This document shows positions 2,141 through 27,046 of a stretch of DNA of 27,834 nucleotides, in pieces. Every line of letters starts with the position of its first letter. The first letter of the stretch is position 1. The stretch is from Bacteroidaceae bacterium (lineage in GTDB: Bacteria > Bacteroidota > Bacteroidia > Bacteroidales > Bacteroidaceae). The DNA is taken from positions 1 to 27,834 of the forward strand of contig JAFYYO010000162.1 in the NCBI GenBank assembly GCA_017557475.1, written 5' to 3'. Below the pieces are notes generated by a model. That model saw only the letters and a list, made by a program, of their open reading frames with translations, had not been told where the DNA came from and made no database searches. A program made the position numbers and the translations under genes.

Positions 2141-2220
2141 CGTCGCACGTTACGGTGGCAATCATAACACGTTATAATGGCAAACGTAACACGTTATGTT
2201 GAGCGACGTAACACGTTATG
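2141..2220. repeat. 22-bp dyad array 1 (ATAAC/GTTAT stems), four units
   Basis: CACG cores at 2146, 2168, 2190 and 2212, exactly 22 bases apart. Units 2-4 have ATAAC-type left arms (gTAAC in units 3 and 4) and GTTAT right arms; the first is degraded. The array fills the whole gap between the convergent dipeptidase gene (stop 2136) and the envC-like gene (stop 2221-2223). On the minus strand it runs out into a T6 tract (complement of 2135-2140), as expected of a factor-independent terminator for the long minus-strand operon. Confidence 0.85.
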
Positions 2221-3543
2221 TTATTTCCCTATCCAAGCTTCGGGGTTCAGTTTGGCAGTTTCCTTGCGCAATTGGAACTGCAGGGTGCAGTTGCCGCTGC
2301 CGTCGTCGGCAACCGTTCCGAGGATGTCTCTCGTCTTCACCTTCTGCCCCTTCTTGACAATTGTGCTGGAGAGATTGCTATAGACGGAGATATAACTGCC
2401 GTGACGCACAAGGACATGACGGGCACCTGCAAACTGGAAAACGCTGGTCACGACACCATCGAAGACAGCACGAGCACGGGCTCCAGGACGACCGATGTAG
2501 TTCGTGCCTTTGTTGTCGAGTTGGACATTCTTCATGCCAGGCACGTTGTAGATGCCGAAGCGGCTGCCCAGCATGTACTGACCGGTGATGGGCACAGGCA
2601 GACGTCCCTTGTTCTGTTCGAAGGTACCATTGATTTGTCGGTCTTCCGCCGTGAGCCAATTGCCTGACTTTGCTGGTGTTGAAGGCGTCGTGGTCTGTTT
2701 CGGAGCAGGCGTCGTAGTAGCTGGTTTGCCCGTCTTTTCCGCCTCTTTTGCTTTGCGAGCAGCTTCCTCGGCAGCCTTCTTGCGAGCCTCTTCCTCCGCC
2801 TTCTTGCGGGCCTGTTCTATCTCGTAGGCAATCACCTGCTCGATCTTCTTGTCGAGTGCCGCCAGTTGCTTCTGTTGTTCTGCCACCTTGCCCTGCAGTC
2901 CGCTCTCCTGCTTCTTCAGGCCCGCCACCTTCTTCTTCTCCTGTACCTGCTGCGCATTCAAGTCCTTGCGCTGGAGCATCACTTCGTGCAGAACGCCACT
3001 CTTCTGGCTTTTGGCCGTCAGCAAAAGGTTCTGAGCATCGAGCAACTCAGCCTGTTTCTGCAGGATTTGCTCGCCGAGATTCTGCTGATAACAAGCGTAT
3101 TCACGAGCATAACGAGCCCGTCGGTACATCTGAGTAAAGGTCTTTGCCGAAAGAACAAAGACGAAAGGATCGGTGCTCTCGCGCTGTGTCCGCGCATATC
3201 GCACAGCAGCCTTGAGGCGTTGGCGTCGCATACGCACCTCGCCATCGAGCTCCGTGATGTTCTTTTGCAAGCGAATGATGTCGGCTTCGAGTCCGTCGAG
3301 TTCCTCCTCAAGTTGATGGATACGGGAGAGACGGTTGTTCATCTGCAGCCCCAGAAAGTCCACATTCTGCTGCCCAGTCTTTACTTGTTTCCTAGTTTGG
3401 TCAAGCTGCGTCTTGGACTTCTGCAGCTCCGTCTTCAACTTCGTCTGCTGCTGCTTCAGTTCCTTCACCTTCTTGCTGTTCTGTGCGGCAAGAGGCAAGA
3501 CCAGGATAAGACTTATGAACAAGAGAAAGAACTTCTTCATCAT
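2221..3543 (-). CDS. EnvC-like murein hydrolase activator (coiled coil + degenerate LytM/M23)
   Basis: Exported protein of 440 aa. Residues 1-20 are a signal peptide (MMKKFFLLFISLILVLPLAAQ). A long charged coiled coil follows (about 22-250), then an Ala/Lys/Glu-rich and Thr/Pro linker (about 250-300), then a LytM-like domain. In the LytM domain the zinc motifs are not conserved: the HxxxD region reads LDNKGTNYIG and the HxH motif reads LQFQL. It is therefore predicted to be non-catalytic, like E. coli EnvC, which binds and activates amidases at the septum. It is the last gene of the DUF4292-TPR-dut-dgt series, 14 bases after DUF4292. The amidase partner is not in this window. Confidence 0.88.
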   Translation of the reverse strand: MMKKFFLLFISLILVLPLAAQNSKKVKELKQQQTKLKTELQKSKTQLDQTRKQVKTGQQNVDFLGLQMNNRLSRIHQLEEELDGLEADIIRLQKNITELDGEVRMRRQRLKAAVRYARTQRESTDPFVFVLSAKTFTQMYRRARYAREYACYQQNLGEQILQKQAELLDAQNLLLTAKSQKSGVLHEVMLQRKDLNAQQVQEKKKVAGLKKQESGLQGKVAEQQKQLAALDKKIEQVIAYEIEQARKKAEEEARKKAAEEAARKAKEAEKTGKPATTTPAPKQTTTPSTPAKSGNWLTAEDRQINGTFEQNKGRLPVPITGQYMLGSRFGIYNVPGMKNVQLDNKGTNYIGRPGARARAVFDGVVTSVFQFAGARHVLVRHGSYISVYSNLSSTIVKKGQKVKTRDILGTVADDGSGNCTLQFQLRKETAKLNPEAWIGK

Positions 3544-3557
3544 ACTTGCTTGAGAGT

Positions 3558-25413: not shown

Positions 25414-26913
25414 ATGGAACAGCCCTTGCTTATCTATAATACCCTGAGCAGGCAGAAGGAACGCTTCAAACCGCTCAATCCTGGAAAAGTCGGAATGTAT
25501 GTCTGCGGCCCCACAGTCTATGGTGATGCGCACCTCGGACACGCTCGTCCTGCCATTACGTTTGACCTGCTTTTCCGTTATCTCCAGCATATTGGCTACA
25601 AGGTGCGTTATGTGCGGAACATCACGGACGTAGGTCATCTTGAGCACGATGCAGATGAGGGTGAGGACAAGATTGCCAAGAAGGCTCGCCTGGAACAGCT
25701 CGAGCCCATGGAAGTGGCGCAATATTATACGAATCGCTTCCACGAGGCGATGGACGCATTAGGTTGTTTGCCACCAAGCATCGAGCCTCATGCAACTGGT
25801 CACATCATCGAGCAGCAGGCTCTGGTTCAGCAGATTCTCGACAACGGCTATGCTTACGAGAGCCATGGAAGCATTTACTTCGACATCGAGAAGTACAACA
25901 AGGACCATCGTTGGGGCATTCTCTCAGGCCGAGACCTCGAGAACATCAAGGATGCGAGCCGCGACCTGGCCGGAGTCGGCGAGAAGAAGAACCAGGCGGA
26001 CTTCGCCTTGTGGAAAGCCGCACAACCCGAACACATCATGCGCTGGCCGTCGCCTTGGAGCGATGGATTCCCCGGATGGCACTGCGAATGCACGGCTATG
26101 GGTCGAAAGTACTTGGGTGACCACTTCGACATCCACGGCGGAGGAATGGACCTCATCTTCCCGCATCATGAGTGCGAGATTGCTCAGGCCGTTGCGAGTC
26201 AGGGCGACCAGATGGTCCACTACTGGATGCACAACAACATGATTACGATTGACGGCAAGAAGATGGGCAAGTCGTACAACAACTTCATCACCTTGCCTGA
26301 GTTCTTCAGCGGTAATCATCCGTTGCTCCAGCAGGCCTACACGCCCATGACGATTCGCTTCTTCATCCTGCAAGCCCACTATCGCAGCACGGTTGACTTC
26401 GGCAACGAAGCTCTGCAGGCTGCGGAGAAGGGATTGGCTCGACTGATGGACGGACTGAAGAACCTGCGTCGCCTCCAGGAAGGACAAAAGGTGAAGGGTC
26501 AGCCTCAGGTCGAGATGAAGTACGTCGACGAACTTCGCACGAAGCTCTACGACGCGATGAACGACGACCTGAACTCACCTATCGTCATCAGCCACCTGTT
26601 CGACGCTTGTCGAGTTATCAATACTCTCACGGACAAGAAGGCCAGCATCACAGCCGAAGTGGCACAGGCTCTGCTCCAACTTATGGAGACTTTCACAACC
26701 GAGATTCTTGGTCTTCGTCAGGACACAGGCGTTAGCAACAAGGCTCGCGAAGAGGCTTTCGGAGCCGTCGTGAACATGCTTCTGGAGCAAAGACAAGCAG
26801 CTAAAGCCGAGAAGAACTGGGTTTTGAGCGATAAGATTCGTGACGACCTTGCCGCTCTTGGCTTCGAGGTGAAGGACACAAAAGACGGCTTCTCGTGGAC
26901 GCTCAACAAGTAG
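25414..26913 (+). CDS. cysS: Cysteine--tRNA ligase
   Basis: Class I aminoacyl-tRNA synthetase, 499 aa. The nucleotide-binding HIGH motif appears as HLGH (40-43) within CGPTVYGDAHLGHARP, and KMSKS as KMGKS (283-287). Zinc ligands that discriminate cysteine are C31, C224 (GWHCECTAMG), H251 and E255 (HHECE). The C-terminal helical and anticodon regions are complete. It is the last gene of the dnaE unit and runs into array 5. Confidence 0.98.
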   Translation: MEQPLLIYNTLSRQKERFKPLNPGKVGMYVCGPTVYGDAHLGHARPAITFDLLFRYLQHIGYKVRYVRNITDVGHLEHDADEGEDKIAKKARLEQLEPMEVAQYYTNRFHEAMDALGCLPPSIEPHATGHIIEQQALVQQILDNGYAYESHGSIYFDIEKYNKDHRWGILSGRDLENIKDASRDLAGVGEKKNQADFALWKAAQPEHIMRWPSPWSDGFPGWHCECTAMGRKYLGDHFDIHGGGMDLIFPHHECEIAQAVASQGDQMVHYWMHNNMITIDGKKMGKSYNNFITLPEFFSGNHPLLQQAYTPMTIRFFILQAHYRSTVDFGNEALQAAEKGLARLMDGLKNLRRLQEGQKVKGQPQVEMKYVDELRTKLYDAMNDDLNSPIVISHLFDACRVINTLTDKKASITAEVAQALLQLMETFTTEILGLRQDTGVSNKAREEAFGAVVNMLLEQRQAAKAEKNWVLSDKIRDDLAALGFEVKDTKDGFSWTLNK

Positions 26914-26940
26914 ATTGAAAACAACCCCAGTTACGATGCC

Positions 26941-27046
26941 AAACATAACACGTTAAAAACGCAAACATAACGTGTTATGTTTGCAATCATAACACGTTAT
27001 GTTTGGCAATTAGGCACGTCTAGTTTAGAGACTAGGCGTGCTTAGT
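26941..27046. repeat. 22-bp dyad array 5, five units, mixed stem types
   Basis: Cores CACG 26949, CGTG 26971, CACG 26993, CACG 27015 and CGTG 27037, all 22 apart. The first three units carry ATAA/TTAT arms and the last two TAGG/CTAG-type arms, so the two stem families are joined in one register. It fills the gap between convergent cysS and the DUF4294 gene and abuts the latter's stop (complement of TTA 27047-27049). On the minus strand a T5 follows the 26971 unit (complement of 26955-26959). Confidence 0.85.

What the first reader, a model, noticed from the sequence alone, without database searches (positions are those of the whole stretch)
2141..27046. Five intergenic arrays of phase-locked 22-bp dyads, one at every transcription-unit end
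Seen directly: arrays at 2141-2220, 10298-10395, 15331-15414, 19291-19379 and 26941-27046 contain 21 units with a central CACG or CGTG, and the core-to-core distance inside each array is 22 every time. All three convergent gene pairs carry one, and the other two lie behind thiL and the flippase-like gene. None lies inside an operon or in a divergent promoter region. Inference: a dedicated 3'-end element, acting as terminator, RNA-end protector, insulator between units or multimeric protein site (22 bp is about two helical turns). I do not recognise it as a described family.
Basis: partly seen in the sequence, partly recalled or inferred. Interest (0 to 1): 0.85.

Follow-up and report, generated by a model that had tools for sequence, protein, structure and literature searches.

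The report
Species-specific 22-bp dyad arrays after genes
Short stacks of mirror-symmetric DNA sites at a near-constant 22-base step sit mostly behind genes in a group of gut bacteria; place and spacing are kept between species while the sequence changes, as if a protein whose taste for DNA keeps evolving used them to mark gene ends.

Summary
In detail: five arrays, 21 CACG/CGTG cores, step 22. They belong to a genome-wide family in one clade of mostly ruminant-gut Bacteroidales: about one array per 10 kb in stretches of six relatives; 0 of 155 arrays inside called genes. Relatives carry arrays at the same gene ends (10/17 to 7/8; controls 2/45) with different sequence. Shared are a frame (CAAWC...GWTTG), a CRYG core and the step; three bases beside the core differ between genomes and change in mirror image. 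Tandem arrays show no transcribed-strand bias, so the symmetry looks kept as DNA rather than RNA hairpins, though the positive control is weak. At convergent gaps, terminators outside the array are rarer when an array is present (29/96 vs 46/72 strands). Best reading, inferred: phased sites of an unknown dimeric DNA-binding protein acting as a direction-independent roadblock or insulator. No protein was found. Bidirectional intrinsic terminators and a selfish repeat family remain serious rivals. 'One at every unit end' fails clade-wide: 48/84 convergent, 76/345 tandem, 12/96 divergent gaps. REP/BIME-like, but without tag and usually without transposase.

The parts
2137..2224 (.). Array 1: four 22-bp cells, cores at 2146, 2168, 2190, 2212, mainly TAA half-sites; fills the convergent gap between a Peptidase_M15 gene (+, stop 2136) and a Peptidase_M23 gene (-, stop 2221)
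10308..10395 (.). Array 2: four cells, cores at 10317, 10339, 10361, 10383, AG-type (CTAG) half-sites, with a degenerate outer cell from about 10286; behind the AIRS (ThiL-like) gene (-, 10418-11479)
15327..15414 (.). Array 3: four cells, cores at 15336, 15358, 15380, 15402, TAA half-sites; behind the LPG_synthase_TM (flippase-like) gene (-, 15425-16408)
19288..19379 (.). Array 4: four cells, cores at 19297, 19319, 19341, 19363, AG-type half-sites, ending in a run of T; convergent gap between the FBPase_2 gene (+, stop 19258) and a CDP-OH_P_transf gene (-, stop 19382)
26940..27049 (.). Array 5: five cells, cores at 26949, 26971, 26993 (TAA half-sites), then 27015, 27037 (AG-type half-sites), the 22-bp step kept across the change of type; convergent gap between the cysteinyl-tRNA synthetase gene (+, stop 26913) and a DUF4294 gene (-, stop 27047)

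Best explanation
A clade-specific family of intergenic DNA arrays. In the commonest type each 22-bp cell is a two-fold symmetric site: an outer frame (CAAWC...GWTTG), a three-base half-site on each side that sets the type, and a CRYG core; cells are stacked at about two helix turns, so that bound dimers would lie on one face of the DNA and could cooperate. The occupied array acts on DNA, equally from both sides, as a boundary at transcription-unit ends: a roadblock or insulator that stops or separates transcription and partly replaces intrinsic terminators. Shown here: dyad in the CRYG type, near-constant step, position, genome-specific half-sites, no strand bias, fewer terminators beside arrays at convergent gaps. 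Inferred: the protein, its cooperative binding, and the blocking or insulating effect.
For: Step: motif-to-motif distances up to 70 bp were 22 in 197 of 214 and 44 in 11 (some arrays counted under two motifs); similar dyad axes found without using periodicity lie 22 bp apart in 40 of 43 pairs at 14-30 bp. Position: 0 of 155 arrays centred in a called gene where 84-91% of bases are coding; period-22 stretches 0 of 153 genic, period-21 stretches 5 of 14 genic; arrays at orthologous ends in 11/15 (ThiL), 10/17 (flippase), 13/18 (FBPase), 10/16 (CDP-OH_P_transf), 8/11 (CysS), 7/8 (DUF4294) relatives against 2/45 at three control ends. Mirror change: the three positions beside the core pair in 66, 76 and 72% of 144 CRYG arrays against 34, 35 and 40% expected; common half-sites differ by genome, e.g. 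TAA 129 of 166 in G001, CCG 135 of 262 in G005. DNA level: tandem arrays on the transcribed strand G.U 348 vs A.C 412, distinct mismatches 139 vs 178, sense and antisense folding energy equal, p=0.73, 53 arrays. Terminators outside the array on 29 of 96 strands with and 46 of 72 without an array, p=2e-5.
Against: No binding protein was found: ParB and HU/IHF domains are present alike in array-rich and array-poor genomes and MatP in none of 20. Arrays also sit in 12 of 96 divergent gaps. Only 58 of 157 consensus units are individually symmetric at p<0.05; types of G003 are weakly symmetric. At four orthologous gene ends, predicted terminators, those inside arrays included, are commoner with an array (27 of 41) than without (5 of 20), which speaks for arrays being hairpin terminators and against simple exchange. 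In L007, L077 and L015 a terminator-like hairpin lies beyond the ThiL array. G005 shows little exchange (9/22 vs 8/16), and gaps with arrays are longer. Several types in one genome need several proteins or a loose one. The strand test's positive control is weak (G.U 41 vs A.C 28, summed).
Confidence: 0.43

Rival explanations
1. Bidirectional intrinsic terminators: neighbouring half-sites form RNA hairpins, and A/T-rich array ends supply U-tracts on both strands.
For: Hairpin plus U-tract overlaps the array on 39% of convergent and 37% of tandem sense strands but only 8% of strands in divergent gaps (n 96, 76, 24); predicted terminators at 27 of 41 orthologous ends with an array and 5 of 20 without; A-rich outer cells; fewer other terminators beside arrays at convergent gaps.
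Against: In tandem gaps the untranscribed strand has the same rate (38%, n 76), folding energies do not differ and G.U is not favoured over A.C; outward T-rich ends are about equally common at tandem exit, tandem entry, divergent and convergent ends; hairpins do not need a fixed 22-bp step.
Confidence: 0.24
2. A selfish or neutral short-repeat family (REP-, MITE- or satellite-like) tolerated mainly behind genes; mirror symmetry and likeness come from template switching and unit gain and loss.
For: Genome-specific types; gain and loss of 22-bp cells in sister species; two nearly identical arrays in L228.
Against: Arrays stand at the same gene ends in many relatives; the step hardly drifts although arms have changed; no REP-type transposase over the cut-off in 12 of 20 genomes, among them five of the six sampled for counts; mirrored ends reach only one outer cell.
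Confidence: 0.22
3. A topology or nucleoid element of the BIME kind (for example a gyrase or architectural-protein site) that relieves or separates supercoils without stopping transcription.
For: Enrichment at convergent gaps and behind genes, presence in some divergent gaps, symmetry and lack of strand bias.
Against: Does not explain fewer terminators beside arrays at convergent gaps or genome-specific half-sites.
Confidence: 0.11

Closest known systems
REP sequences and BIMEs (GTAG- and CGTC-tagged extragenic palindromes)
   Same: High-copy extragenic palindromes, mostly between co-directional and convergent genes and downstream of coding regions, some species-specific, several types per genome (PMC3733652, abstract and passages); BIMEs are regularly spaced REPs reported to bind proteins (PMC2817692, passages).
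   Different: Contiguous cells with a near-constant 22-bp step, no conserved GTAG or CGTC tag in the CRYG cells, and no Y1 transposase over the cut-off in 12 of 20 genomes.
BrickBuilt minisatellite/MITE of Porphyromonas gingivalis
   Same: Bacteroidales, intergenic, tandem short repeats (PMC4596501, abstract and passages).
   Different: 23-nt unit of another consensus, 19 copies in one strain, leader and tail with inverted ends, promoter activity reported; here a 22-bp unit, roughly 190-370 arrays per genome by extrapolation, mirrored only in one outer cell.
Intrinsic terminators
   Same: Place behind genes; terminator-like hairpins overlap 37-39% of arrays on sense strands.
   Different: No transcribed-strand bias, two-sided, near-constant 22-bp step.
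Phased protein-site arrays such as plasmid iterons (recalled, not from a call)
   Same: Direct repeats at about two helix turns.
   Different: Hundreds of loci per genome at gene ends, each cell itself symmetric; linkage to replication genes was not examined.

Membership tests
REP/BIME | extragenic palindromes of 20-40 bp in high copy | tested here: met
   22-bp cells, 0.85-1.22 arrays per 10 kb in stretches of six relatives, 0 of 155 genic; symmetry clear in the CRYG type, 58 of 157 units individually at p<0.05
REP/BIME | predominantly downstream of genes, between convergent or co-directional genes | tested here: met
REP/BIME | conserved GTAG or CGTC tag at one end | tested here: not met
   base composition of 144 CRYG cells shows no such tetranucleotide; ends are CAAWC/GWTTG
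REP/BIME | associated RAYT (Y1 transposase, PF01797) in the genome (GTAG kind) | tested here: not met
   over the cut-off in 8 of 20 genomes; absent in G001, G003, G006, G008, G013, present in G005; the genomes are MAGs and may be incomplete; CGTC REPs lack a dedicated transposase too
BrickBuilt MITE | 23-nt tandem unit | tested here: not met
   period 22
MITEs | terminal inverted repeats | tested here: inconclusive
   left versus reverse-complement right identity 0.355 in the outer cell, 0.261 and 0.243 beyond, n 109; L228 arrays have longer inverted ends
MITEs | target-site duplication | not tested
   no empty sites were compared
Intrinsic terminator | hairpin plus U-tract on the transcribed strand | tested here: inconclusive
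   overlaps 37-39% of arrays on sense strands, 38% on the untranscribed strand of tandem gaps, 8% in divergent gaps
Intrinsic terminator | RNA pairing kept on the transcribed strand (G.U tolerated over A.C) | tested here: not met
   139 G.U vs 178 A.C distinct mismatches in 53 tandem arrays; positive control weak
Known RNA families (Rfam 15) | match at the gathering score | tested here: not met
   0 matches in the window
Phased protein-binding array | constant helical phase | tested here: met
   22 or 44 bp in 208 of 214 distances
Phased protein-binding array | bound by a specific protein | not testable with these tools
   needs pull-down or footprinting

The most novel reading that the evidence does not exclude
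A dedicated bacterial transcription-boundary system: an unknown homodimeric protein with fast-evolving half-site specificity coats phase-locked arrays at hundreds of gene ends and works, irrespective of direction, as a protein roadblock terminator and insulator in place of intrinsic terminators, the arrays being converted to the current specificity in each species.
Probability: 0.27. Interest if true: 0.9.

Novelty: new variant of a known kind. Interest (0 to 1): 0.7.

Why it matters
The arrays keep place and helical step while their sequence is replaced between related species, which ordinary homology search misses and which points to selection on geometry and symmetry. If a protein roadblock is involved, it would be a chromosome-wide, direction-independent way of ending or separating transcription in bacteria, and the changing half-sites would let one watch a DNA-binding protein and hundreds of its sites evolve together. 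Even if neutral, it is an unusual case of concerted evolution that preserves a 22-bp period.

Tried and rejected
Rejected or weakened: RNA-end protector and one-way hairpin terminator (no strand bias); RAYT-driven REPs; MatP (0 of 20 genomes), ParB (one domain in each of 20) and HU/IHF (2-11 matches in each of 20, no clear difference between array-rich and array-poor) as the partner; Rfam families; phage origin (0 exact matches of two array patterns in viral contigs; no match of one 111-base array stretch in the phage collection). BrickBuilt was considered and set apart. Led nowhere: the alignment of three-cell arrays of different types came out gapped and no model was made from it; the outward base profile without phase alignment was flat; dissimilar neighbouring dyads were too few to test phase across type junctions (four pairs, two of them at 22), so that point rests on single cases: window 26993-27015 at 22, and the ThiL end of L015 and L077 at 22 and L007 at 21, counted by eye.

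Weak points: genes were called by my own script; with small training it labelled array 4 'tandem', whereas one search gives the convergent call used here. 'Genic' means the array midpoint lies in a called gene. One search dropped L102, L103, L104, L106, L111, L120, L146, L152 and L176 as suspected duplicates; rest on that set, on the lists before that step, so a few overlapping stretches (for example L009 and L152) count twice there. keep only arrays whose best axis pairs at 55% or more (53 of 76 tandem arrays). Some period-22 stretches are simple A/T-rich repeats (for example L006 21642, L126 18845). Related sequences share types by descent, so cells are not independent. The relatives are mostly MAG contigs, sampled mainly from contig starts.
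Full report
What is there. One thousand block shuffles of the window gave at most one such chain. Each unit is a 22-bp cell without linker: 9-bp arm, CACG or CGTG core, 9-bp arm. Two main types occur in the window, TAA half-sites (TAACRYGTTA) and AG-type half-sites (CTAG), and array 5 changes type between 26993 and 27015 without losing the step. Of the neighbouring genes, ten were scanned with Pfam: among those flanking arrays are Peptidase_M15, Peptidase_M23, AIRS (ThiL-like), LPG_synthase_TM, FBPase_2, CDP-OH_P_transf, cysteinyl-tRNA synthetase and DUF4294.

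Where else it occurs. The window's own genome is not held. The FBPase protein brought 80 loci from genome contigs, the best 80 of 133 relatives; the closest 19, with 82-95% identity, are labelled Bacteroidaceae, Prevotellaceae or Bacteroidales, mostly MAGs from ruminants by their titles. In 20 close loci including the window (386,820 bases) there are 42 stretches of period 22, against 8 for the next period apart from the harmonic 44; in the 61 other loci (1,107,330 bases) there are 2. Stretches of six related genomes (G001, G003, G005, G006, G008, G013) hold 15-44 period-22 arrays each, 0.85-1.22 per 10 kb, and 22 is the commonest period in all six; extrapolated to sizes of 2.1-3.0 Mb this is roughly 190-370 arrays per genome. 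With a covariance model of the window's cells, 16 of 61 genomes of the genus of G001 match at E 0.01 and 5 of 251 of its family at E 0.001, G001 itself counted in both; the model is tuned to the CRYG type. In stretches of 20 same-genus genomes without a model match there are 7 period-22 stretches in 377,770 bases, 4 of them passing a dyad threshold, with unrelated sequence. Under that threshold array-rich stretches hold 38 dyadic arrays of period 22, 4 of period 21 and 5 of other periods; distant loci hold 3 of period 21 and 2 of period 22. L010 has a 21-bp array behind FBPase where relatives have 22.

Position. Of 155 arrays in the window and six genomes none is centred in a called gene; 47 were classed convergent, 76 tandem, 18 divergent and 14 at contig edges. 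By gap of 60-700 bp, 48 of 84 convergent, 76 of 345 tandem and 12 of 96 divergent gaps hold one. In tandem gaps 66 of 76 lie nearer the upstream stop, median 25.5 bp from the stop and 168.5 bp from the next start. At the window's gene ends, relatives with at least 300 bp downstream carry an array of period 20-24 in 11/15 (ThiL), 10/17 (flippase), 13/18 (FBPase), 10/16 (CDP-OH_P_transf), 8/11 (CysS) and 7/8 (DUF4294); FBPase with CDP-OH_P_transf, and CysS with DUF4294, share a gap. Three control gene ends give 2/45. For the genes beside array 1 no relative's locus reached that far.

Sequence turnover with near-constant geometry. Behind the same FBPase gene the cells are CTAG-type in the window, GTTAACGTGTTAC-like in L001, CACACTAGT-like in L002 and L004, CCGCRYGCGG-like in L003 and L006, CCCTATAGGG-like in L007 and L077 and GGTTAA-like in L014 and L016. 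In 144 CRYG arrays (one cell each) the frame CAAWC...GWTTG is common, while the three bases beside the core vary and pair with their mirror positions in 66, 76 and 72% of arrays against 34, 35 and 40% if independent; over all nine arm positions the means are 0.59 observed and 0.44 expected, and shifted pairings give 0.21-0.36. Not every type is symmetric: 58 of 157 consensus units reach p<0.05 on their own. Common half-sites differ by genome. In the sister species L015, L077 and L007 the ThiL end holds two adjacent types in 2+2, 2+4 and 5+1 cells, so cells come and go in 22-bp steps (counted by eye). Motif-to-motif distances up to 70 bp are 22 in 197 of 214 and 44 in 11; 23 occurs once and 21 never.

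RNA or DNA. If the dyads served as RNA hairpins, tandem arrays should favour G.U over A.C mismatches on the transcribed strand. They do not: 348 against 412, or 139 against 178 when each kind of mismatch is counted once per array and axis positions are left out (53 arrays: 18 lean to G.U, 30 to A.C, 5 tie). Folding energy is the same for both strands (p=0.73). Canonical terminators in the same material and in distant loci lean the other way, but weakly (41 to 28, summed over), so the test has limited power. Outward T-rich ends (4 of 6) are found at 67% of tandem exit, 74% of tandem entry, 73% of convergent and 67% of divergent ends. The first outer cell is partly mirrored (0.355), the next two are at background (0.261, 0.243).

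Relation to terminators. On strands entering convergent gaps, a hairpin plus U-tract outside the array was found on 29 of 96 with an array and 46 of 72 without (Fisher p=2e-5), although gaps with arrays are longer (247 against 152 bp). In G001 it is 2 of 16 against 12 of 14; in G005 only 9 of 22 against 8 of 16. Per gap, 20 of 48 with and 27 of 36 without an array have such a terminator on either strand. Counting also hairpins that overlap the array, 57% of convergent strands with and 64% without an array have a terminator. Against a simple exchange: at four orthologous ends, 27 of 41 ends with an array and only 5 of 20 without have a predicted terminator within 250 bp, those inside arrays included (of the 20, L015 at ThiL and at FBPase holds short arrays and L005 at FBPase has one further out). 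In L007, L077 and L015 a terminator-like hairpin lies beyond the ThiL array.

Reading. Symmetry, near-constant helical step, two-sidedness, position and genome-specific half-sites fit phased sites of a homodimeric DNA-binding protein that marks transcription-unit ends, probably as roadblock or insulator. That is inference; ParB, HU/IHF and MatP gave no lead. A bidirectional intrinsic terminator, and a neutral or selfish family kept alike by template switching, remain serious rivals.

Known relatives. REP/BIME elements share copy number, palindromes and placement (PMC3733652, abstract and passages; PMC2817692, passages) but have tags and, for the GTAG kind, a transposase that CRYG arrays lack or mostly lack. 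BrickBuilt (PMC4596501, abstract and passages) has another unit length and sequence. In the listings of eight literature searches I saw no title or abstract opening that describes such arrays; four papers were opened, in outline or passages (PMC5771137, PMC4596501, PMC3733652, PMC2817692). The library lacks most subscription journals, so absence there is not proof.

Noticed in passing
window 10233-10264: A run of CTATAG at 9-bp steps between array 2 and the next gene; a shorter form stands at the same place in L007, L077 and L015, and CTATAG repeats occur in L197.
   Followed up: no
L228 211-287 and 5680-5759: Two nearly identical arrays of the TACATGTA type with long inverted ends, about 5.5 kb apart; they look like recent copies of a mobile piece.
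   Followed up: no
L010 12044-12176: A 21-bp array of GAAAATATATTTTC-like dyads at the FBPase end, where relatives have 22-bp arrays.
   Followed up: partly
L020 17996-18096, L069 2708-2816 and 14029-14111; also L013 18782-18874: Dyadic arrays of period 21 with unrelated sequence in two more distant relatives and in one close relative that lacks 22-bp arrays, suggesting that two-helix-turn dyad arrays are wider than the CRYG family.
   Followed up: partly
L206 1597-1716: Four near-perfect 22-bp palindromes (GAGTCCATGTGCGTGGACTC type) in tandem in a same-genus genome without a model match.
   Followed up: no
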